Part shown: one piece after another, positions 1-39,376 of the stretch
Layout: each line of letters opens with the position of its first letter
How positions within the stretch are numbered: position 1 is the stretch's first letter
Assembly (NCBI GenBank): GCA_030645355.1
Contig: JAUSNJ010000028.1
Span: forward strand, 1-64,000
Length of the DNA stretch: 64,000 nt
Reading direction: 5' to 3'
Origin: Rhodoferax sp.
GTDB taxonomy: Bacteria > Pseudomonadota > Gammaproteobacteria > Burkholderiales > Burkholderiaceae_C
Made by a program: the position numbers and the translations under genes
Notes under the pieces: model-generated
Database searches by the model: none
Seen by the model: the letters and a program-made list of their open reading frames with translations, nothing else
Told to the model about the DNA's origin: nothing

Positions 1-334
1 GGGTTTGCTCCAGGTCCATCTGGCAGCCTTCGATGACGGCCTGCAAATGGCGTTGCTCAATGCCAAATTCTGCGGTCAGCGGCATCAGGGCCTGCATCAC
101 CGGATGGCTGGGTTGGCCGGCGAAGGACTTGGCCACTTCGGACTGCCACCAGGCCAGCTTGGTCTGGGCCACACCGGCATCCACCATGTCGTCCACCACA
201 TCGTCGACCTCGCGGCAGAAGGCGTAGAAGGCGGTGATGGCGGCGCGTTTGGGGGCTGGCAGGAACAAAAAGGCGTAGTAGAAGCTGCTGCCCGAGGCGG
301 CGGCTTTTTGCTGGACGTATTGCGCGGGATTCAT
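1..334 (-). CDS. hpnD: Presqualene diphosphate synthase HpnD (N-terminal part, runs off window)
   Basis: The first 111 codons of a trans-isoprenyl diphosphate synthase of the squalene/phytoene synthase family are visible; the rest lies left of the window. The protein begins MNPAQYVQQK and carries the Asp-rich Mg-diphosphate binding motif DDVVDD at residues 44-49, preceded by AFYAFCREV, which is typical of HpnD. HpnD condenses two farnesyl diphosphates to presqualene diphosphate in the HpnCDE route to squalene and hopanoids. hpnC lies upstream on the same strand, but a 358-bp gap filled with hairpin repeats separates them, so co-transcription may be disturbed. The start ATG at 334 is the first in-frame Met of the conserved region. 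Confidence 0.85.
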   Translation of the reverse strand, partial: MNPAQYVQQKAAASGSSFYYAFLFLPAPKRAAITAFYAFCREVDDVVDDMVDAGVAQTKLAWWQSEVAKSFAGQPSHPVMQALMPLTAEFGIEQRHLQAVIEGCQMDLEQT

Positions 335-410: not shown

Positions 411-502
411 GGATCAGGTGGGCTACGTGTTTTGCTTCGTGTCCCCCGCCCGCTGCGCGGGCTCCTCCTTGACCTACGCAAAACACGCAACCCACCTGAT
501 CC
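411..502 (+). repeat. Hairpin repeat family P, copy 1
   Basis: A 92-bp palindromic element. The 25-bp outer arms (411-435 and 478-502) are complementary at 23 of 25 positions. They flank a 42-bp core with the strings cgtgtcccccgcccgc and gggctcctccttgacct and its own small GC stem. The core is shared with copies 2 and 3, while most of the outer arm sequence is not. Confidence 0.85.
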
Positions 503-560
503 GCCCGCAGCACTGGTGTGCCGACCCAGAAAAACTGGAAACCGAAACGCCGCTCGTAGC

Positions 561-660
561 AGAAGGGATGGGCGTGGGCAGTGTGTTCTGCGTAGGTCAA
601 GGAGGAGGCCGAAGGCCGGGGGACACGAAGCAGAGCACACTGCCCACGCCCATCTCTTCT
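561..660 (-). repeat. Hairpin repeat family P, copy 2 (inverted)
   Basis: A 100-bp palindrome with 31-bp arms (561-591 and 630-660) that are complementary at 29 of 31 positions. The 38-bp core is the reverse complement of the copy 1 core and is slightly shorter, with a ggccgaaggcc inner stem. On the plus strand the core reads gtaggtcaaggaggagg, which includes a Shine-Dalgarno-like purine run. Copies 1 and 2 face each other about 60 bp apart. Confidence 0.85.
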
Positions 661-692
661 GCGTGCTCAGAACAGAAGTCAGATGGCCCCTG

Positions 693-1565
693 TCACATCC
701 ACACTGCCCTCCACAGCATCACCGGAAAATCCCACCAACGCAGGGTCGGGCGCTGGTTCAGCGTGGCGTAGTGCAGGGCCTCGATGCGGTCCAGTATGCG
801 CAGGCCGCCTTGCACCACCAGGCGCAGCTCCCACCCCGCGCGACCCGGCACCTGGTGCACAAGGCTTGAGCCAAATTGCATGCTAGCCCTCGCCGTTGCT
901 ACGCAGTGTGCTATCAGTTGCGTAGCGTTATGGGTTTGGCGCTGCGCCAGGATGTCGGCCTGTGACACGCCAAAACGCATGCAATCGTCCTGCGGCAAGT
1001 AGTAGCGACCGCGGGGAATGTCCACGCTCAGGTCTTGCCAGAAGTTGATGAGCTGCAACGCGCTGCAAATGGCGTCGCTGCGCTGCAACGCCAGCGCATC
1101 GGTCACGCCGTAGAGGTGCAGCAACAGACGGCCCACCGGGTTGGCAGAGCGGCGGCAGTAGTCCAGCAGCTCGGCGTGGCTGGCGTAGCCTTCTGCGGCC
1201 GCAGACTTGCGTGTGTCCTGCACGAAGGCGTCGAGCAGGTCGTGCAGCAACTGGGGGGGCAGGTGATGCGTCTGCAGCGCGACCTGCAAGGGACCGAAGA
1301 CCTGGGGCCAGCGGGCGCTGCTGGGGCCAACGGTTGCGCCACTTGCCGCCGCGCAGCTTGCGACCAGGTCCTGGCGATAGGCCTGCAGTTCTTCAATCCG
1401 CTGTGCCGCGGTGGCGTCACCTTCGTCGGCGATGTCGTCGGCCGTGCGAGCAAAGTGGTAGATGGCGGCAATAGGCGCGCGCAAATGGGCGGGGCACAGG
1501 AAGGACGCGACCGGAAAGTTTTCGTAGTGGGTGATGGGCGCGGGGCTGGCCTGGGGTGCGTGCAT
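693..1565 (-). CDS. hpnC: Hydroxysqualene synthase HpnC
   Basis: A 290-residue squalene/phytoene synthase family enzyme, normal for HpnC, which converts presqualene diphosphate to hydroxysqualene in the HpnCDE pathway. The first Asp-rich motif is DDIADEGD (residues 43-50). The second metal-binding region is INFWQDLSVDIPRGRYYLP (around 173-191). hpnD follows on the same strand after a repeat-filled gap. Residues 213-228 are encoded by a copy of the dispersed 44-bp repeat (884-927), read antisense, after the second motif and apart from the catalytic residues. The start ATG at 1565 gives the usual short N-terminus before the ITHYENFPVAS segment. Confidence 0.9.
   Translation of the reverse strand: MHAPQASPAPITHYENFPVASFLCPAHLRAPIAAIYHFARTADDIADEGDATAAQRIEELQAYRQDLVASCAAASGATVGPSSARWPQVFGPLQVALQTHHLPPQLLHDLLDAFVQDTRKSAAAEGYASHAELLDYCRRSANPVGRLLLHLYGVTDALALQRSDAICSALQLINFWQDLSVDIPRGRYYLPQDDCMRFGVSQADILAQRQTHNATQLIAHCVATARASMQFGSSLVHQVPGRAGWELRLVVQGGLRILDRIEALHYATLNQRPTLRWWDFPVMLWRAVWM
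884..927 (+). repeat. 44-bp dispersed repeat family T, copy 1 (inside hpnC)
   Basis: Starts with tagccctcg and is exactly 44 bp long like the other six copies. Its right end diverges (tagcg instead of tagca). It lies in frame inside hpnC, antisense to the gene. Confidence 0.7.
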
Positions 1566-1610
1566 TGGGGGGATTTTGCCAGCAGGTGATCTACAGACCA
1601 GCCCATGTCA

Positions 1611-4600
1611 TCAGATCCGGTAACGCAGCAGCGCCCACAGTGTGGGCTGTTCGTCGTTGCGAAGGTCCCTCTGCACGGTGCCGGTAAAGCTCCAGCGTCG
1701 GTCGGAAGACTCCCAGCTGTGGGCCAGTGCCAGACTCCAGCCAGCCGGTCGCTCCACCCAGTTGGCCTCGTCACTGTAGAGTCTGTCGCGCCACGTCATC
1801 CGCAGCAGCGAGAAGCTGCGCGCCTCATGGCGCCAGGTGGTCTGAATCAAAGCCACGTCGCGGGCAAAACCGGGCAGCAGGTTGCCCACGTAGCCCGCGC
1901 CGGTGTTGCGCGAGTCGGTGCGCTGGTAGCTGCCCAGCACGCTCCAGCGTGGCCCCAACAGGTGGTTGGCGGACACGCTGGCCTGCGCCAGGTCGCCCTG
2001 GCCGAAGATCGGTGTTGCGTCGTAGGTGTTGAGCGTGGTTTGCGCGTTCAGCACCACCGGTGCAATGGTGGTCACGTTGTCGAACAGGGCGCCCATGTCC
2101 TGCGCAAACAGACGTCCGTTGGTCGCCACCAGGTTGCTGATACTCTGGCCCGACAGGCTGGCACCGACAAAGGTCGCTGGCCCTACCTCCCAGTCGAGTT
2201 GCAGGGCGTGCTTGCGTGCGTAGCTGCCCGCCATCTGGTACTGGTTGTCCACCGCAATGGCCCCGGTGGCCACGGGCGCCAGTGTGTGCGTGCCGGGCGC
2301 GTGCAGGCTTTCCTGGTAGGCCCAATGCAACGCGCGGCCGGGTCCGAAACGCAGGCTGGCTCCTACACGTGGCAGCAGCTTGCGGCTGTGTTCGGCGCCC
2401 TCTTCATTGGGGGTGAACAGGTCCTGGCCGGTGGCGGTGTCGGTATAGCGGTCACCCTTTTGCGCGTTGAACCGTGGCCAATAGGCTTCAGCCGTCCAGC
2501 TCCAGGCGCCACTGCGCCATTCGCCGGCCACCCATGGCATGTCGTATCGTTCGGTGTTGGTGAAGGGCGACGTGACGTCGGGGTCCGAGATGGCACTGCC
2601 CGTGTCGCGGTCCACCCGCTCCCAGCCTGCGCTCACGCGGTGCGAACCCCACATCACGGTGTGGCGCAAAAAAAGGCCTTTTTCGTCGCTCTGGTAGCGG
2701 TAGTCCTGCGGACCATAGCGTGCATCGTCGATCACCAGGCCCGTTGTTTGACGCCCGCTGTGGGCCTTGATCCAGGTCTGGCTATCGGCCGACCAGCGCC
2801 ACGAAGCGCCGGCATCGGTGCGCCGGTTGCGGGTCTCAGCGTCGCCGGTAAATGCTTGGCCGTTGCCAAAGTCCAACCCGTCCGGAAAGCGGTAGCGCAG
2901 CGTGGTGTCGCCATGCAGCAAGAAGACCGAAAGGCTGTCAGTGGGCTTGGCGCCCAGCGCCACATTTATGCCGGGTGAAGACAACCGATACTGGGACGAC
3001 GGTGGCCCCTCGCGCGGCCAATATTGCACATCGTCGCCACGTACCAGCCAGGCCACGGGCACGGTGCCCGCCGCGAAGCCGCGGTAAACCACATCGACTG
3101 TGGCGTTGTGGCGCAGCGGGTTGCTCTCGGCACTCGCACCCATAGACCATTCGCTGCCGGTGGATAGCAGCAGAGGCGCACGCTTGTCGCTCGCCCCAAA
3201 GACCGTGGGGTCGCTCAGGTAGCCCTGGAACAGCTCGGAGCGGCGGCTGAAATCACTTTCGTATCGGTCAGACAGAAAAAAGTGGCTACCGGCCCACAGC
3301 GGGTAGTAGGACGCATTGGCGTAGGCCCGTGCCCAATGCTCCATGCCGAAGTCGCCCAGCGCCTTGCCCAGGTTGGCCGAGCCTTGGCTGTCGGACGCCA
3401 GCGGGTTCAGCGACTTGAGGTAGGGCAGCCGCACTAGCGCTTCGCGTGCCGCGGCAATGGCCTGGGTGGGGTCACCGCTGTCGTTGCGCAGCATGGCCTC
3501 GATCTGCCAGGGCAGCGGGTCATTGGGGTCGGCCAGGCGCGCCCGGTCCAGCGAATCCAGCGCAGCGCCGCGCTCGCCCAGCGTGTATTCGGCCACCGCC
3601 AGCCAGACCTGGGCACGGGCGTAGCGCGGCTCGATCACCAGGGCCTTGAGCAGATGGGTGCGCGCGGCCTCGGCATCGCCCTGCTTCAGGGCCAGCAGAC
3701 CCGCGCCGGCCAGGCTCACATAGTCATCCCCCGTGCGGGCCAGCGCGGCGTCAAAGCCGGTGCGGGCTTCTGCCAGTTGCAGGGCCTCGGTGGCGGCCGT
3801 GGCCTGCTCGCCGCGGTAGCTGGGGTTGTCGGGTGCCAATGCCACGGCCTGCGCCAGTGCCACACGGGCGGCGCGCAGATCGCCGCGTTCCTGCAGCGCG
3901 CGGCCCAGCGCCCACTGCGCGGCGGCGCGCTGGGCATCGCCCTCGGCGCGGGCCAGGGCTTCGCGGTACAGCGCCAGCGCGGCGTCGCCATGTCCTTGCA
4001 GCCGCTGCCAGTCGCCATCGGCCAGCAGCAGTTCCACGGCTGTGGGCGCGGCCGCGCGGCTGGTGTCGAGCCAGGTGCGGGCCTCGGCGCCGCGGTCCAA
4101 AGCCATCAGCAGATCGGCCCGGCGCGCCGCCGTACGTGGGTCCTGTGTGCGCGTCCACGCGTTACGCAAGCGGGCTTGTGCGGCGTCGAGCTGTCCTTCA
4201 AAGACCTCCAGGTCGGCCAGTACCAGGTCCACCACCGCGCCACCTTCGCCGTTGGCAGCCATCGCCAGCAGCCGGGCCCGCGCCTCGGTCCATTGCCCGG
4301 CGCGCAGGTCTGCTCGCACGGTGGCCAGCGGTGCCGCAATATCGGCCCTTTGAAACTCTGCCCAGCGCGTGTCGTCTCCCGGGTAGGCCGCCACCCACTG
4401 CACACGCTCGCGCGGGCTCACCAGCAGGCGCTTGACGGGGGCCTTGCCCGGCTCCGCGTAGCCCTGCTCGGCGGGGCCTAGCTGCACGCTGCCATACGCG
4501 TTGGAAAGGTCCACCTGCCCCGACAGCACCGTCAGTGTTGTGCGCCCGACGGCGTCCACCTCGACATCCCAATCCGTGCCACGCACCACGGCCAGCGCCG

Positions 4601-5006
4601 CGGGGGTTTGCAGCTGCAGGGCGGCGGGGGTTTTCTTGGTGCGTGCCCACAGGCGCCCGGCGGCCAACTCCAGCAAGGTGCGTGAGGCTTGCGATTCGCA
4701 CAGGCGCAGCTGCGCGTTGGATGACATGCGGATCTGCGTGCGGTCTGCCAGCAGCAGCGCGGCGGATGACAGTGCCAACGTGCGCATATCGGCTCCGGCG
4801 CCCAACTGCTGCGCAAGCGTGGCGCTCGACCACGGTTCCATCCCGGGTGCTCGGGTCTGCCCCTGCCCGGCCAGGGCCACGATCTGCGCCGCGACGGCGT
4901 CGGGCGCCAGCGGCGTGCCCGCGCATTGTGCCCAGGCAGCGGGGACGCTCAGAGCACCGAGCGCTAGGGCCAGCGGGGTCATCCGGAACAGGCGATGTGA
5001 AGACAT
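1611..5006 (-). CDS. FecR-domain, TPR-repeat outer-membrane beta-barrel protein
   Basis: A 1131-residue exported protein of unknown specific function. It has a signal peptide (residues 1-26, LALALGALSVPAAWA). A FecR-like domain follows (about 70-185, with VVRGTDWDVEV and TLTVLSGQVDL). Next is an Ala/Leu-rich TPR array (about 205-530), and then a long C-terminal part rich in alternating aromatic and polar residues that ends in LWALLRYRI, consistent with an outer-membrane barrel. It begins 27 bp after the CHASE2 cyclase gene on the same strand, so the two form a probable operon. This pairing suggests an envelope signalling or secretion system, but that is inference. The start is the ATG just before the signal peptide. 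Confidence 0.75.
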   Translation of the reverse strand: MSSHRLFRMTPLALALGALSVPAAWAQCAGTPLAPDAVAAQIVALAGQGQTRAPGMEPWSSATLAQQLGAGADMRTLALSSAALLLADRTQIRMSSNAQLRLCESQASRTLLELAAGRLWARTKKTPAALQLQTPAALAVVRGTDWDVEVDAVGRTTLTVLSGQVDLSNAYGSVQLGPAEQGYAEPGKAPVKRLLVSPRERVQWVAAYPGDDTRWAEFQRADIAAPLATVRADLRAGQWTEARARLLAMAANGEGGAVVDLVLADLEVFEGQLDAAQARLRNAWTRTQDPRTAARRADLLMALDRGAEARTWLDTSRAAAPTAVELLLADGDWQRLQGHGDAALALYREALARAEGDAQRAAAQWALGRALQERGDLRAARVALAQAVALAPDNPSYRGEQATAATEALQLAEARTGFDAALARTGDDYVSLAGAGLLALKQGDAEAARTHLLKALVIEPRYARAQVWLAVAEYTLGERGAALDSLDRARLADPNDPLPWQIEAMLRNDSGDPTQAIAAAREALVRLPYLKSLNPLASDSQGSANLGKALGDFGMEHWARAYANASYYPLWAGSHFFLSDRYESDFSRRSELFQGYLSDPTVFGASDKRAPLLLSTGSEWSMGASAESNPLRHNATVDVVYRGFAAGTVPVAWLVRGDDVQYWPREGPPSSQYRLSSPGINVALGAKPTDSLSVFLLHGDTTLRYRFPDGLDFGNGQAFTGDAETRNRRTDAGASWRWSADSQTWIKAHSGRQTTGLVIDDARYGPQDYRYQSDEKGLFLRHTVMWGSHRVSAGWERVDRDTGSAISDPDVTSPFTNTERYDMPWVAGEWRSGAWSWTAEAYWPRFNAQKGDRYTDTATGQDLFTPNEEGAEHSRKLLPRVGASLRFGPGRALHWAYQESLHAPGTHTLAPVATGAIAVDNQYQMAGSYARKHALQLDWEVGPATFVGASLSGQSISNLVATNGRLFAQDMGALFDNVTTIAPVVLNAQTTLNTYDATPIFGQGDLAQASVSANHLLGPRWSVLGSYQRTDSRNTGAGYVGNLLPGFARDVALIQTTWRHEARSFSLLRMTWRDRLYSDEANWVERPAGWSLALAHSWESSDRRWSFTGTVQRDLRNDEQPTLWALLRYRI

Positions 5007-5033
5007 GGGAGGGCCTTTCGTCTTGGGGGAGGG

Positions 5034-7037
5034 TCAGGATTTGTCCAGCGCACGGGCGCTGAAGGGGGAAACCGCGCCGGGCGTTTGTGCGGCGCTGTCG
5101 GAGTTGCTGTCGGTGTTGGCCAGCACCTGCACCCGGCTGTGCAACTGGTTGGCATGGGCGAGCCACTGCGGGGCCAGCGAACGGGCATGTGCCTGCCAGG
5201 CCGCGCAGCACAGCAGTGCCTGCGCCCACTCGCCCGCCTGCAGATGGCCATGGAGTGCCCGGCTGATCGCCACCAAAGCCGGGTCATCACAGAGGGTGTA
5301 GACATCGATGCCGGCACTGCGCCCGGCCAGCACCACCGCGTCCAGCCACAGCAGGTGGGCATGTTCCGCACTGTCGGCGCTCAGGGCATTGCGTGTGGCG
5401 GCCGACAACAAAATGCCCGTGCCAAAGACCTTGTTGGCGCCTTCCAGCCGGGCGGCGGTGTTTACCGCGTCGCCCACTGCCGTATAGGTGAAGCGCTCGT
5501 GCGAGCCCAGGTGGCCAACCGCCGCTTCGCCGGTGTGCAGGCCGATGCGCAACTGCACTTTCCCAAACGGTGTGCCGGCCCACTCGTCTCGCAGCGCGAC
5601 CATTTCAACCTGCATGGCCTGGGCGCAGGCCAGCGCGCGCTCGGCATGGGCCGGGTCGGGCAGGGGCGCGTTCCAGAACGCCATGACCGCGTCGCCAATG
5701 AACTTGTCCAGCGTTCCGCCGTGCTGGTGCACGGTGCGCGTCATGCGGGAAAAGTAGGCGTTCAGCGCCTGGGCCACGGCCTCCGGCGGCAGGTGCTCGC
5801 TGGCGGAGGTGAACCCCGCCAGGTCGGAGAACAGCAGTGTGAGCACGCGGCGCTCGCCCCGCAGGGCCGACTCCGCGCCCGAAGCGGCCAGCGCGTCGAC
5901 CACGGCTGGTGGCACGTAACGGGCAAAGTCATTGCGCAGCTGCTCGCGGCGACGGCGTTCGCGCCAGTAGCTGTCAGCCGCGCCCACGTTTAGGTGCAGG
6001 GCCAGACCGGCCAGCGTGGGCAGCGTGCTCCACCACACGCCCGTCAGATACGCCCACAGCCCGCCCCCCAAGGCCAGCAGCGCCAGCAGCAGACTGATCC
6101 ACACCGCGCGCCAGCCCGCCCAACGGCGGGTCAGCCCCGCCACTACCCCCATCGCCAGCGTTGCCTGCAGAGCCGGCCCCGCAGGGTGGGCCGGCACGAC
6201 CCAGTCACCCGCCAGGCCATTGATCAGGGCCGTGGCATGCAGGAACACGCCCGACTGCGGGCCACCACCCAGCTCACGCAGGGGGGTGGCAAACTGGTCC
6301 ACGCTGTCGACCGGCGTGTGCTGGCCCAGCAGCACCAGCCGCCCCTGCAACGCGCCGGGGGGCAGCATGGCGACCGGGTCCAGCGCCTGGGTGTAATGGG
6401 CATAGGGCAAGGGCACTTCGGGTGCGTAGTAGCGCAGCAGCGCGCCGGGTGGCGGGGGCGTAAAGGCACGGCCCCCGCTCTGCGCCAGCACGCGCCACAG
6501 CGCATCGTCCTGTGCGGGCGCACGGCGCAGCACGCCGTCATCGTCTACGTCCAGTGCCACGCTGCCGTGGCGCGCATCTGGAAAGACGGTGGGCACGGTC
6601 TGCCGGTACTGCGCCACCTGGGAGCTCTGCACGGCCACCTCCGCGCTGGCCAGCACCACGGGCATGCGGCCCTGCAGCGCCTGGGCCAGCGCCGCGTCGT
6701 CCGCGGCAGACTGGGGGACGCCAAACAGCATGTCGATACCCAGTGCAGCAGTGCCCGCCGCCGAGAGTGCGTCTACAAGTTGGGCGTGGAGGCGGCGCGG
6801 CAGGGGGGGGGCCAGGTTCAGTGCGGCCAGGCTGGGTTCGTCCAGACCCACCACCAGCACACCTGCGTCCGGGCGAACCGGGGCGGTCAGGCTGCTGAGC
6901 AGGTCGTATTCCAGTCGCTGCACAGGCACCCACACCGGCGTCACATGCAGCACGGCCAGTAGCCCCAGGGCGAGCAGCAGTCGCAGCGCCCAGGCCCGCC
7001 ATGCATCTATCTCAATCGATACCGGATGGCTCGCCAT
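5034..7037 (-). CDS. CHASE2-domain adenylate/guanylate cyclase
   Basis: A 667-residue inner-membrane class III nucleotidyl cyclase. An N-terminal membrane helix is followed by an extracytoplasmic CHASE2 sensor (about 30-310). Two to three further membrane helices come next (about 290-370). The C-terminal catalytic domain has the two metal-binding Asp residues in LLFSDLAGFTS (Asp405) and FIGDAVMAFW (Asp449), and the TAVGDAVNTAARLE segment. I chose the ATG at 7037, not the upstream frame-opening codon at 7289, because it has a GGGAGAGGGA ribosome-binding site and directly precedes the first helix. It is probably the first gene of an operon with the FecR-TPR protein. Whether it makes cAMP or cGMP cannot be read from the sequence alone. 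Confidence 0.85.
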   Translation of the reverse strand: MASHPVSIEIDAWRAWALRLLLALGLLAVLHVTPVWVPVQRLEYDLLSSLTAPVRPDAGVLVVGLDEPSLAALNLAPPLPRRLHAQLVDALSAAGTAALGIDMLFGVPQSAADDAALAQALQGRMPVVLASAEVAVQSSQVAQYRQTVPTVFPDARHGSVALDVDDDGVLRRAPAQDDALWRVLAQSGGRAFTPPPPGALLRYYAPEVPLPYAHYTQALDPVAMLPPGALQGRLVLLGQHTPVDSVDQFATPLRELGGGPQSGVFLHATALINGLAGDWVVPAHPAGPALQATLAMGVVAGLTRRWAGWRAVWISLLLALLALGGGLWAYLTGVWWSTLPTLAGLALHLNVGAADSYWRERRRREQLRNDFARYVPPAVVDALAASGAESALRGERRVLTLLFSDLAGFTSASEHLPPEAVAQALNAYFSRMTRTVHQHGGTLDKFIGDAVMAFWNAPLPDPAHAERALACAQAMQVEMVALRDEWAGTPFGKVQLRIGLHTGEAAVGHLGSHERFTYTAVGDAVNTAARLEGANKVFGTGILLSAATRNALSADSAEHAHLLWLDAVVLAGRSAGIDVYTLCDDPALVAISRALHGHLQAGEWAQALLCCAAWQAHARSLAPQWLAHANQLHSRVQVLANTDSNSDSAAQTPGAVSPFSARALDKS

Positions 7038-7310
7038 TCCCTCTCCCTTGTGCGAGTGGTTCACGAGTGGTTCGCGCGCTGCCTGCGCACTATTCTCAAG
7101 CAGTATGCGCTCCAATTGGCTTTGCGTGAAGACCCGAATACCCCACTTCGGCGTCAGCCGGCTCCTGGCCCCGGCGAGTTGCGATGCATGCCATGAAATC
7201 AGCACTCTGTCGCATGGCGCTGGCTGTACGCCGGCGCCGGCCCTACAGTCGCGCCCACCCATCCAATGGCATAGCAACCGATGTCTCAACCCCTTTCACT
7301 GAAGGATCAC

Positions 7311-8192
7311 ATGACCACTTCCATCTACCTGGGCGGCTCTGCGGCCGTACCGCTGGCCCAACGCATCCTGCGCTTTCCCGTCACCCGCATCGTTCTGGCC
7401 CTCATCTTCTTTATGGTGCCGTTCCTGCTGATTCAGGCCGGTGCCACCCATTTCTTTGAAGAGAAGCTGTTCTCACGCCTCGGTCAGTTGCTGGGGGCCT
7501 GCATGGGTTGCCTGTCGTATGCGTTCTACGTGGTCAAGATAGAAAAGCGCGCGGTGTCCGAGCTGGCGTTCAAAGGCGCCTTGCGGGAGTACTGCGCCGG
7601 CTTTGTGCTGGGCGGATTGATGGTGTGCCTCTCCGTGGCGGCCATCGCGGCGTTGGGAGGGCTGCGTACGCTGTCCGTCGCGAGCGGTAGCATCATCGCC
7701 TTGCCACTGCTGATGCACATCACCGTGGGGCTGATTGAAGAAATGGCGATGCGCGGCATTTTCTTTCGGGTTCTGCAGGAGTCTCTGGGCAGTTGGCTGG
7801 CGCTGCTGGCGTCGGGCCTGGTGTTTGGTGCCATGCACCTGGTCAACGACAACATCTCCGCACTGGCCATCGCCAACATCACGGTAGCGGGTGTTTTCTT
7901 CGCCGCGGCCTTTTTACTGACGGGGCGCCTGTGGTTGTGTGCGGCCCTGCATGCAGGCTGGAACTTCTTTCAGGACGGCATTTTCTCGTTGGCGGTGTCG
8001 GGCCACGAGGTGAAAGCAGGCTTGTTCGTGACCGAACTCGGTGGACCCGATTGGTTGACCGGTGGAGCATTCGGCATCGAAGGCTCGGCTGTTGATTTGG
8101 CGTTTGTGGTGTTGGCCAGTGCTGCCTTGGTGTTGCTGGCCTGGCGCCAGGGCCGCATCGTGCGCCCCAGTTGGGCGCGCAGCAGGGGGTGA
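7311..8192 (+). CDS. CPBP-family intramembrane metalloprotease
   Basis: A 293-residue polytopic membrane protein of the CPBP (Abi/CAAX protease-like) family. It shows the three family motifs: EEMAMRG (EExxxR type), FGAMHL (FxxxH) and ALHAGWNF (HxxxN). These form the metal site inside the membrane. Seven to eight hydrophobic segments are visible. The ATG at 7311 is preferred over 7281 because GAAGGA sits 4-9 bases upstream. The gene is divergent from the cyclase and convergent with the GNAT-like gene. The substrate is unknown; bacterial members process prenylated or other membrane proteins, or act in bacteriocin self-immunity. Confidence 0.85.
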   Translation: MTTSIYLGGSAAVPLAQRILRFPVTRIVLALIFFMVPFLLIQAGATHFFEEKLFSRLGQLLGACMGCLSYAFYVVKIEKRAVSELAFKGALREYCAGFVLGGLMVCLSVAAIAALGGLRTLSVASGSIIALPLLMHITVGLIEEMAMRGIFFRVLQESLGSWLALLASGLVFGAMHLVNDNISALAIANITVAGVFFAAAFLLTGRLWLCAALHAGWNFFQDGIFSLAVSGHEVKAGLFVTELGGPDWLTGGAFGIEGSAVDLAFVVLASAALVLLAWRQGRIVRPSWARSRG

Positions 8193-8225
8193 GGCGGCGC
8201 TGCACGCCTGGCGGCAAGCTTGGGG

Positions 8226-9527
8226 CTAGCGCTCTTGCGGGTTTTGCCGGAAGGGGCTGCGCTGCGTCAAATCATCCAGGTAGTTGCTGATCCCCTGGTC
8301 TTCGCGCTCCAGAAACCGCGCCACCGCGTCGGCAAACGCGGGGTGCGCCAGCCAGTGGGCGCTGGTGGTTTTGACGGGCAGCAGGGCGCGGGCCATCTTG
8401 TGTTCGCCCTGGGCGCCGCCCTCAAAACGCTGGTAGCCGTGTTCTATGCACCACTGCAGGGGCTGGTAGTAGCAGGCCTCAAAGTGCAGGCAGTCCACGC
8501 GCTCCAGGGCGCCCCAGTAGCGGCCGTAGGCTACTTTTTCGTTTTCGCTGCGGAGACTGGGCGGCAATGCGTTCTGCTCCGTGTCCCCCGCCCGCTTTGC
8601 GGGCTCCTCCTTGACCTGCGCAGAACACACTGCCGCCCAGTCTTCTTGGGCGTTTTGGTTGCTAGCCCTCGTGGAATATGTGTCAAGCGCTATTAAACTG
8701 GTAGCAATTGGGTGGCCGTTGCGCTCGGCGGTGAACAGCAGCCAGTTGTCTGGCATGGTGTCGGCCATGCGCTGGAAGAAGTCGCGGTTCAGGTAGGGCG
8801 CGTTGCCGTGTTCCAGGTAAGTGCGCTCGTAGCAGCGGTAGAAGAAGTCCCAGTCCGCTTGGGTGATGTCGCGGCCCAGTGACCAGCGGAAGGTCACTCC
8901 TGCCTCAGCGACCTTGCGGCGCTCCTGGCGGATCTTCTTGCGCTTTTCCTGGGACAGGGATTGCAGGAAGGCATCGAAGTCGGCGTAGCCGTGATCTGTA
9001 TTCGTCCAGTGAAACTGCACGGTGTGGCGCAGCATCAGGCCGGCCTGTTCGCAGGCAGCGCCTTCGGCCTCGTCGACGAACAGCAGGTGCAGGGACGACA
9101 TGCCACTCTGTTCACACCAGCGCAATAGCGTCTGCAGCAGGGCGGTACGTGCCTCGGGCGAACGGGCCATCAGACGGGCACCGGGCACGGGCGTGAACGG
9201 CACGGCGGCTACGGCCTTGGGGTAGTAGGGCAGGCCGTGCTGGGCGTAGGCGTTGGCCCAGGCCCAGTCGAACACGTATTCGCCGTAGGAGTGGGCTTTC
9301 TCGTAGATGGCGCAGGCTGCGACCAGTGCGTCAGCTTGGTACAGCGTGAAGAAGTGTGGTTTCCAGCCTGTCTTCGCGTTGGCGCTGCCGCTGCTGTGCA
9401 GTGCGGCAAGGTAGGCGTGGCGCATGAAGGGGCTGGGGTTGGGCTGGGTTTGCAGCAGGGCGTCCCACGCGGCGGCATCGACCTCCAGCGGCGAGGTTTT
9501 CACCCGAATGACATAATCCTCAGCCAT
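8226..9527 (-). CDS. GNAT/FemAB-like N-acetyltransferase family protein with repeat-derived insertion
   Basis: A 433-residue protein of the family annotated as GNAT N-acetyltransferase or peptidoglycan biosynthesis protein (DUF482/PF04339 type). Family hallmarks include FHWTNTDHGYADFDAFL, SQEKRKKIRQERRK and HFEACYYQP...FEGGAQGEHKMARAL. Members are usually about 380 residues. Here residues about 274-325 interrupt the conserved run between LIALD and VAYGRYWGALE and are encoded by two dispersed repeats (8554-8643 and 8663-8706). The frame stays open through both. The insertion falls inside the acyltransferase core, so the product may be inactive, or the insert may be a tolerated loop. The in vivo substrate is unknown. 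Confidence 0.8.
   Translation of the reverse strand: MAEDYVIRVKTSPLEVDAAAWDALLQTQPNPSPFMRHAYLAALHSSGSANAKTGWKPHFFTLYQADALVAACAIYEKAHSYGEYVFDWAWANAYAQHGLPYYPKAVAAVPFTPVPGARLMARSPEARTALLQTLLRWCEQSGMSSLHLLFVDEAEGAACEQAGLMLRHTVQFHWTNTDHGYADFDAFLQSLSQEKRKKIRQERRKVAEAGVTFRWSLGRDITQADWDFFYRCYERTYLEHGNAPYLNRDFFQRMADTMPDNWLLFTAERNGHPIATSLIALDTYSTRASNQNAQEDWAAVCSAQVKEEPAKRAGDTEQNALPPSLRSENEKVAYGRYWGALERVDCLHFEACYYQPLQWCIEHGYQRFEGGAQGEHKMARALLPVKTTSAHWLAHPAFADAVARFLEREDQGISNYLDDLTQRSPFRQNPQER
8554..8643 (+). repeat. Hairpin repeat family P, copy 3 (inside the GNAT-like gene)
   Basis: A 90-bp palindrome with 24-bp arms (8554-8577 and 8620-8643) that pair at all but three positions. The 42-bp core differs from the copy 1 core at only a handful of positions. 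Outside the core, the arms (agactgggcggc and its complement) do not resemble copies 1 or 2. It is read through in frame by the GNAT-like gene. Confidence 0.85.
8663..8706 (+). repeat. 44-bp dispersed repeat family T, copy 2 (inside the GNAT-like gene)
   Basis: Begins tagccctcgtggaatatg and ends ggtagca, exactly 44 bp. It sits 19 bp from hairpin copy 3, so the two repeat families form a compound insertion in one reading frame. Confidence 0.85.
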
Positions 9528-9589: not shown

Positions 9590-11666
<2,077 letters not shown>

Positions 11667-16620: not shown

Positions 16621-16701
16621 TTTTTGTAGACGAATCTATTGTCCGCCAAGCCCGCAACTTACCGGTTGCGGGGGAGGGCGGCGAAAAGAGGAATCCATTT
16701 C

Positions 16702-38596: not shown

Positions 38597-39376
38597 ATGT
38601 CAGGGAAAGTATGGCTTGCAGTTGATGGCAGCTTGGCCAGGGTAACCATTGAGCATCCGGGCAAGCACAACGCCATGTCGCGTGCCATGTGGCGTGAGCT
38701 GCGTGCGGTGTTTGAGCAGATCCAGCGGGACGATGCGCTGACTGCGGTTGTGGTCGGCGGCCAGCAGCACTTCTGCGCGGGTGGTGATATCTCGGAGTAC
38801 GCCGCCTTTCGCTTCAAAGAGGCCAGCCTGCGCGATTTTCACGAGAACGACGTGTGGGGCGGCCTGGGGGCCATGCTAGCCTGCGACGTGCCCATTGTGG
38901 CCAGGATAGACGGTAACTGCATGGGCGCGGGTGTGGAGATCGCCAGCTGCTGCGACATCCGCATCGCCAGCGACCGCGCCCGGTTCGGCGCGCCCATCGC
39001 CAAGCTGGGCTTTCCCATGGCCCCGCGCGAAGCGGCGCTGGTCATGCGTGTGGTGGGTGAACTGACCGCCAGGGAGATGCTGCTGTCGGCGGCCGTGCTG
39101 GACGCTGGCGAGATGAAGCAGCGTGGCTTTCTGAACCAGGTGGTGGGTGGTGACCTGCTGGAGTCGGCGGTGCACGCCTGCCTTGATCGCATGCGCACCC
39201 TGGCGCCACGCGCCGCGCGCCTCAACAAACAGGCATTTCGTGCTCTAGCCCTCGCGGATATTGAACATGCAGCTACTGATTTAATAGCATTCGCCTACCA
39301 CTATGCAGACTCCGCCGAACACCGGGAAGGTGTGACCGCGTTCACCGAAAAGCGCCCGCCGCGGTTTGCACCCTAG
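38597..39376 (+). CDS. Enoyl-CoA hydratase/isomerase (crotonase) family protein
   Basis: A 259-residue crotonase-fold protein. The oxyanion-hole segments are HFCAGGDISEY and DGNCMGAGVEIASCCDIRIASD. It lies in the malonate operon, 12 bp after the transporter binding protein. Malonate operons do not usually need a crotonase, so the substrate is open. Residues about 217-231 come from a 44-bp repeat copy (39246-39289). The general acid/base Glu positions of classical hydratases fall at KLGFPMAPREAAL, where the usual Glu is not obvious, so another crotonase reaction is possible. Confidence 0.85.
   Translation: MSGKVWLAVDGSLARVTIEHPGKHNAMSRAMWRELRAVFEQIQRDDALTAVVVGGQQHFCAGGDISEYAAFRFKEASLRDFHENDVWGGLGAMLACDVPIVARIDGNCMGAGVEIASCCDIRIASDRARFGAPIAKLGFPMAPREAALVMRVVGELTAREMLLSAAVLDAGEMKQRGFLNQVVGGDLLESAVHACLDRMRTLAPRAARLNKQAFRALALADIEHAATDLIAFAYHYADSAEHREGVTAFTEKRPPRFAP
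39246..39289 (+). repeat. 44-bp dispersed repeat family T, copy 7 (inside the crotonase gene)
   Basis: Begins tagccctcgcggatattg and ends tttaatagca, one of the copies closest to consensus. It is in frame and sense to the gene. Confidence 0.85.

What the first reader, a model, noticed from the sequence alone, without database searches (positions are those of the whole stretch)
411..8643. Hairpin element with conserved core but copy-specific, self-complementary outer arms
In the three copies (411-502, 561-660, 8554-8643) the 38-42 bp core is shared, while the outer arm sequences differ between copies (for example gggcgtgggcag versus agactgggcggc versus ggatcaggtggg). Yet within each copy the two arms pair over 24-31 bp with only two or three mismatches. 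Shared ancestry alone cannot give this: the arms must be made or maintained as a pair in each copy. That points to selection on a stem, or to a mechanism that copies one flank to the other side (template switching or hairpin-primed repair).
Basis: partly seen in the sequence, partly recalled or inferred. Interest (0 to 1): 0.78.

Follow-up and report, generated by a model that had tools for sequence, protein, structure and literature searches.

The report
Comamonadaceae hairpin repeat with coevolving arms
The three hairpins belong to a dispersed repeat family of Comamonadaceae-type bacteria, found between genes and, in frame, inside housekeeping proteins, whose two stem strands change together so that one folded strand (probably RNA) is kept.

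Summary
Each copy has a ~25-bp outer stem, a conserved purine-rich internal loop (GGTCAAGGAGGA / GGGGGACAC) and an inner stem of free sequence and length. Both stems covary (31 of 36 pairs). Arms are not templated at insertion: they are related between copies (45.6% identity; flanks 26.7%) and keep changing in pairs at fixed sites (116 double Watson-Crick changes, 143 Watson-Crick/G·T, 60 to mismatch). On one strand G·T outnumbers A·C 327 to 42, so the conserved form is a single-stranded fold of the GGTC strand. Copies occur as intergenic outward twins (48 of 50 distinct adjacent pairs) or singly; inside genes 28 sense, 2 antisense, nearly always in one frame encoding AQVKEEPAxRAGDTEQ (hosts include MutL, Mur ligase, helicase). 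It resembles Rickettsia palindromic elements and REPs but fails tested REP features; identity with the published repeat BRE was untestable. RNA rather than ssDNA, and a binding factor, are inferred.

The parts
411..502 (-). copy 1, type I hairpin, GGTC strand is minus; loop strands at 463-474 and 439-447
561..660 (+). copy 2, type I hairpin (model bounds 567-654); loop strands at 595-606 and 618-626; forms an outward twin with copy 1
503..566 (.). 64-bp spacer of the twin formed by copies 1 and 2 (by model bounds)
8553..8644 (-). copy 3, type I hairpin in frame in a FemAB-like gene, encodes AQVKEEPAKRAGDTEQ
8226..9527 (-). FemAB-like gene (PF04339) that hosts copy 3 in a loop of variable length
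2..334 (-). squalene/phytoene synthase gene (PF00494, runs off the window), on one side of the twin
693..1565 (-). squalene/phytoene synthase gene (PF00494), on the other side of the twin

Best explanation
This is a dispersed palindromic element of Comamonadaceae-type bacteria, REP/RPE-like in behaviour. Shown: arms of different copies are related; a two-stranded purine-rich internal loop is kept while both flanking stems drift; the drift is compensatory and tolerates G·T far more than A·C on the GGTC strand, so selection sees that strand folded on itself. Shown: copies are present in some and absent in other relatives at the same place, exist as intergenic outward twins or single copies, and inside genes are almost always sense and in one reading frame. 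Inferred: the folded strand is RNA in transcripts, the stem holds the loop strands in register for an RNA-binding factor, and the element was spread by an unidentified helper. In genes, copies survive where a hydrophilic insert of about 31 residues is tolerated. In twins, whichever strand is transcribed carries one sense hairpin.
For: Covariation: 95.8% of cells paired, 31 of 36 pairs with two-sided change, 0 of 500 shuffles on each of five measures (74 of 120 type I copies; that control does not keep relatedness). Unfiltered 168 copies: 3569 WC, 327 G·T, 42 A·C, 166 other cells; 133 copies have more G·T than A·C, 13 the reverse, 22 equal; 52 arm-divergent representatives 90 to 9. The asymmetry holds in sense coding (11:1, 17 copies), single intergenic (95:12, 57 copies) and twin copies (138:12, 76 copies); 2 antisense coding copies 2:1. 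Compensation after insertion in 26 clusters. Divergent members also change GGTC/GACAC to AGTC/GACAT (by eye). Outward twins: 48 of 50 distinct adjacent pairs. In genes 28 sense, 2 antisense; 28 of 30 sense copies in one frame; all 18 host proteins scanned have Pfam domains.
Against: No transcript data. Single copies between co-directional genes are only weakly sense-biased (18 to 9, one-sided p 0.06), and in another tally of intergenic singles within 60 nt of a gene's 3' end 16 are sense and 19 antisense. The sense bias inside genes could follow from the tolerated reading frame alone. Copies were found by an intact core, so decayed copies are under-counted. No helper was found. Some copies have lost pairing (G022 deletion product; L154; one member in L170).
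Confidence: 0.6

Rival explanations
1. A selfish mobile element whose functional form is a single-stranded DNA hairpin recognised by an endonuclease during transposition (as RAYT or IS200-type enzymes do). Stem and loop would be kept for mobility, and resident copies would have no function.
For: Patchy copy number (0 to 30 exact copies within one genus), sites filled in some relatives only, strand asymmetry and fixed stem length also fit ssDNA; sense bias near genes is weak outside coding regions.
Against: Resident copies keep compensating at the same place in different genomes, one cluster with 11 copies. Y1_Tnp presence is unrelated to the element (51 of 67 element-bearing against 60 of 83 element-free genomes, recounted; the own genome, 88% complete, has none). 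RVT_1 likewise (29 of 67 against 34 of 83). No clear target-site duplication. Other helper families were not searched.
Confidence: 0.25
2. Arms are made as a pair by templating: one arm is host sequence and the other is copied from it by template switching or hairpin-primed repair, perhaps repeatedly.
For: Arms differ between copies yet pair; a FemAB empty site in G003 carries GGAGAC, equal to the start of the arm in filled relatives.
Against: Arms of different copies are related: 45.6% identity against 26.7% in flanks. Empty sites lack a whole arm. G003 groups with a filled homologue, so a deletion scar is likelier (weak support). Copying would leave perfect pairs or symmetric mismatches, not 327 G·T to 42 A·C.
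Confidence: 0.05
3. A double-stranded DNA palindrome (cruciform or symmetric binding site) is what is selected.
For: Twins and singles are dispersed and mostly intergenic.
Against: A DNA-duplex constraint is strand-symmetric, whereas the mismatch pattern is strongly asymmetric, and the loop strands are not complementary to each other (read from the sequence).
Confidence: 0.04
4. The encoded peptide is what is selected, and the hairpin is a by-product.
For: 28 of 30 sense copies inside genes use one frame.
Against: Twins are intergenic (42 of 42 recognised) and show the same stem asymmetry; two coding copies use another frame.
Confidence: 0.04

Closest known systems
Rickettsia palindromic elements (RPE; passages seen in PMC2229807, and PMC6649704)
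   Same: Long stem-loop elements (105-146 bp there), dispersed, found between genes and fused in frame inside conserved proteins.
   Different: Another host group. Here both stems covary around a conserved loop at sites kept across genomes; a passage of PMC6649704 says the Rickettsia elements lose repeat identity over time. Outward twins are a main form here.
GTAG and CGTC REPs, REP dimers, RAYT (abstract and passages of PMC3733652)
   Same: Palindromic units, often paired in opposite orientation, most dimers 20-100 bp apart, close to 3' ends of genes, some inside genes including repair genes.
   Different: Those have stems of 5-13 bp (GTAG) or 8-9 bp (CGTC) and an unpaired tag; here the outer stem is about 25 bp plus an inner stem, no conserved tag outside the stem, no link to Y1 transposase. 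That paper does not name the six Comamonadaceae terms I looked for.
BRE, Beta-proteobacterial repeat element (Hot et al. 2011, PMC3110155; passages and section 14 read)
   Same: About 90 bp, GC-rich, in Comamonadaceae (29 in Polaromonas sp. JS666, 4 in Rhodoferax ferrireducens), usually intergenic, some wholly inside genes.
   Different: Described in Bordetella as tandem arrays with variable copy number; the section read does not describe a hairpin.

Membership tests
Rickettsia palindromic element-like | palindrome fused in frame in protein genes as well as in spacers | tested here: met
Rickettsia palindromic element-like | sequence homology to RPE families of Rickettsia | not tested
   no RPE sequence compared
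REP (GTAG/CGTC) | unpaired GTAG or CGTC tag at the foot of the stem | tested here: not met
   flank information at most 0.39 bit (type I) and 0.61 bit (type II) per position in the 25 nt outside the stem
REP (GTAG/CGTC) | short stem of 5-13 bp | tested here: not met
   25 bp outer stem
REP (GTAG) | association with RAYT / Y1 transposase | tested here: not met
   no association over 150 family genomes; own genome has no Y1_Tnp match (88% complete)
MITE | target-site duplication | tested here: inconclusive
   no clear excess of flanking direct repeats in type I; in type II 10 three-base repeats against 1.4 expected, but inside the stem foot and the best of many offsets tried; relatives too diverged for clean junctions
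Known RNA family | match to an Rfam 15 model | tested here: not met
   none at gathering score on the window copies; below it only hairpin-like matches, best mir-449 37.1 bits against a cut-off of 60.4 on copy 2
Intrinsic terminator | T run after the stem | tested here: not met
   no T consensus 3' of the stem
BRE | BRE sequence | not testable with these tools
   text only
BRE | tandem arrays | tested here: inconclusive
   of 50 distinct adjacent pairs 48 are outward, 1 inward, 1 in the same orientation; no tandem-repeat tool was run, and Bordetella was not examined by name

The most novel reading that the evidence does not exclude
A family-wide RNA module: one conserved two-strand loop, held by stems that are free in sequence, recruits one factor to some 20-35 transcripts per copy-rich genome, and was carried there by a mobile element that also decorates housekeeping proteins (MutL, Mur ligase, HrpA-type helicase, PutA, DNA polymerase III alpha-type) in frame.
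Probability: 0.3. Interest if true: 0.85.

Novelty: new variant of a known kind. Interest (0 to 1): 0.62.

Why it matters
It is a clean natural case where pairing, more than sequence, is conserved in a dispersed bacterial repeat, with strand polarity readable from G·T against A·C. It makes a standing question about palindromic repeats testable: whether resident copies are selfish leftovers or do work as RNA. It also adds another bacterial group to those (Rickettsia and several REP-bearing species, PMC3733652) where hairpin elements sit in frame inside conserved proteins.

Tried and rejected
Helper search: Y1_Tnp and RVT_1 do not track the element (recount); no other helper family was tried. 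Viral contigs: 0 stretches with the exact core. Plasmids: no match for window:405-660. Rfam: nothing at gathering score; sub-threshold only. Target-site duplications: no clear signal. Empty sites between relatives were mostly too diverged for exact junctions. Template-copy idea from the GGAGAC remnant in G003: judged a deletion scar after a gene tree (node support 66 and 70, so not firm). Intergenic orientation as RNA evidence: 18 sense to 9 antisense (p 0.06) and 16 to 19 in a different tally, not used as proof. Papers: nine of ten searches used; I saw their listings (20 of 41 and 20 of 25 papers listed). None showed this element by title or abstract start, except possibly BRE. Passages of PMC2755013 mention only CRISPR.

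Rows dropped: L129 (a chance match) and copies with under 40 nt of flank, leaving 168 of the 177. Of 120 type I copies 84 were left after an 85% identity filter; I aligned 74 and left out L040, L088, L096, L100, L115, L116, L156, L161, L163 and L169 for odd inner stems or doubtful typing. Of 48 type II 35 were left, 34 aligned (alignment not used for a pair count). In one search the de-duplication key for singles was too strict (coding sense fell to 17), so orientation inside genes is given. The 233 copies and 51 twins contain loci fetched twice; the twins have 45 distinct spacers. Of the 30 sense coding copies many are orthologues; by my own grouping there are about 20 distinct sites, 18 in the main frame. 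A few (L046, L078, L008, L124, L025, L030) lie at gene ends where the called start or end may be wrong. In one search comparisons between different types were skipped (clusters L004/L035/L089/L102 and L062/L150).

Full report
Observation. The GGTC strand is minus for copies 1 and 3 and plus for copy 2. Folded as RNA this strand gives -64.8, -83.4 and -68.4 kcal/mol, the opposite strand -51.7, -70.4 and -63.5; no shuffle of either strand folds as well. The 12-mer TCCTCCTTGACC, one mismatch allowed, is found 3 times against 0.09 expected.

Extent. The own genome has 30 exact-core copies and no match to the reversed control; a relaxed pattern gave the same 30, while the later model also finds copies with a changed core (35 candidates scored). 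Of 41 genomes searched for the exact core, 11 of the 25 of the genus have it (1 to 30 copies) and 0 of 16 others in the order. A model built from 74 copies hits 67 of 150 family genomes at E 0.001 or better, with at most 28 candidates scored per genome. In a sample of 120 order genomes 5 have hits: the own genome, one of the same family, and three of one genus in another family. The exact core is absent from the viral contigs and a window stretch had no match in plasmids.

Anatomy. Read on the GGTC strand: outer arm; a three-base loop (mostly GCA/GGA or GTA/GAA, type I) or a G-A-rich loop (GTGA/GAAC or GCGA/GAGC, type II); helix GGTC with GACAC; strands AAGGAGGA and GGGG; inner stem region of 11 to 26 nt in the exact set. 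Type I pairing is high to position 25 and falls over the next three positions to background. A pair inside each outer loop covaries (C-G/T-A in type I; T-A/C-G in type II). Divergent members change GGTC/GACAC to AGTC/GACAT, or GGTC to GGTA, so the exact core of the first pattern is partly ascertainment.

Covariation and polarity. In A1 (74 of 120 type I copies) 95.8% of cells pair, 31 of 36 pairs have two-sided changes, there are 584 such cells, 0 of 500 shuffles reach any of the five measures, and sliding by one base drops pairing to 35-40%. The shuffles do not keep relatedness and the structure comes from these sequences. In all 168 copies, chosen by core and not by arms, outer-stem cells are 3569 Watson-Crick, 327 G·T, 42 A·C and 166 other. 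A strand-symmetric constraint predicts equal G·T and A·C. The bias stands in sense coding, single and twin copies and in 52 arm-divergent representatives (90 to 9). So the selected form is the GGTC strand folded on itself. DNA G·T would show a similar bias, so RNA is inferred, not shown.

Compensation at fixed sites. Grouping 225 copies by homology of both flanks gave 26 clusters with 76 copies. Stem positions compared: 772 unchanged, 143 single Watson-Crick/G·T, 116 double Watson-Crick, 60 single to mismatch, 13 double to mismatch, 12 double with G·T, 4 others. This is pairing kept after insertion. The largest cluster holds 11 copies, the next five (in a gene with Mur ligase domains in L077). 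Each member was compared only with the first of its cluster, so a change in that one counts more than once. Copies enter only with an intact core.

Arms are related, not templated. Outer-arm identity averages 0.495 within the own genome and 0.46 to others; over 154 type I copies it is 0.456, against 0.267 in sequence further out and 0.324 after shuffling each arm. In the FemAB-like gene 3 of 29 aligned genus genomes carry the insert (the gene is found in 30 of 31). Empty loops have no arm, except six bases in G003, which groups with a filled homologue (support 66). Between the two squalene synthase genes the own genome has the twin, G022 what looks like a deletion product with mismatched outer arms, G007 one copy, and 25 of the other 27 loci a spacer without the core; in two (G003, G009) the second gene was not found next to it.

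Two lifestyles. recognises 51 opposite-strand pairs, all outward, spacers 38 to 179 bp, 34 of 51 between 40 and 60; 45 spacers are distinct, 23 of them between type II and type I, 13 between two type I (as in the window), 9 between two type II. A looser tally over every locus gives 48 distinct outward pairs, one inward (L170, where one member pairs poorly) and one in the same orientation (L213, two good hairpins). None of the 42 twins recognised lies inside a gene. Single copies inside called genes are 28 sense to 2 antisense. Of 30 sense copies, 28 use the frame AQVKEEPAxRAGDTEQ and 2 (L032, L036) the frame GQGGARxAGGGHGAE. All 18 host proteins scanned have Pfam domains; they include MutL (element between two domains in L020), Mur ligases, a helicase with DUF3418, proline dehydrogenase/aldehyde dehydrogenase (sense in L093, antisense in L098), DNA polymerase III alpha, CobU, XdhC, a DSBA-like protein, an AraC-type regulator and ThiG. 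Names such as Mpl, HrpA and PutA are my reading of the domains. Genes were called with a home-made hexamer caller. By inspection of the core, the other sense frames and two of three antisense frames are also free of stops, so use of one frame suggests selection on which peptide is tolerated; that would also explain the sense bias without any RNA role.

Mechanism. Most likely the stems present the two loop strands in a folded transcript to a binding factor, and an unknown helper once spread the element. The ssDNA-hairpin mobile element is the main rival; Y1 and reverse transcriptase genes do not track it (51 of 67 against 60 of 83, and 29 of 67 against 34 of 83). AAGGAGG also resembles a Shine-Dalgarno sequence (recalled, not tested).

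Known relatives. RPE and REP comparisons rest on passages of PMC2229807, PMC6649704 and PMC3733652; BRE on passages and one section of PMC3110155. BRE may be the same family in part: size, hosts and occasional coding location agree; tandem arrays were not seen as a main form here. If it is the same, the repeat is not new, but I saw no account of its covarying structure, polarity, twins or reading frame in the section read or in the nine search listings.

Noticed in passing
window 881-926, 8660-8705, 10341-10386, 39243-39288: A second repeat of about 46 bp (TGCTAGCCCTCG...GCTATnAnAnnGnTAGC, with mismatches) occurs at least four times; three copies lie inside called genes and the fourth in an ORF; one is right beside hairpin copy 3 in the FemAB-like gene.
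   Followed up: partly
L264 (G022), spacer between the squalene synthase genes: The twin seems to have collapsed by deletion into one hairpin with mismatched outer arms.
   Followed up: partly
L228 (G159): A member with a 123-nt span carries a long inner stem-loop, so the inner part can accept extra sequence.
   Followed up: no
L020, L164 (and L061 by flank homology): The element sits in the MutL linker at the same place in two genomes, probably three.
   Followed up: partly
L170 3040-3145: A variant member with the loop AGTC...GACAT but different, poorly paired inner arms, arranged inward to its neighbour; L062 has a similar one.
   Followed up: no
window 16629-16696: ilvH RNA (RF02993) at 95 bits.
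   Followed up: no
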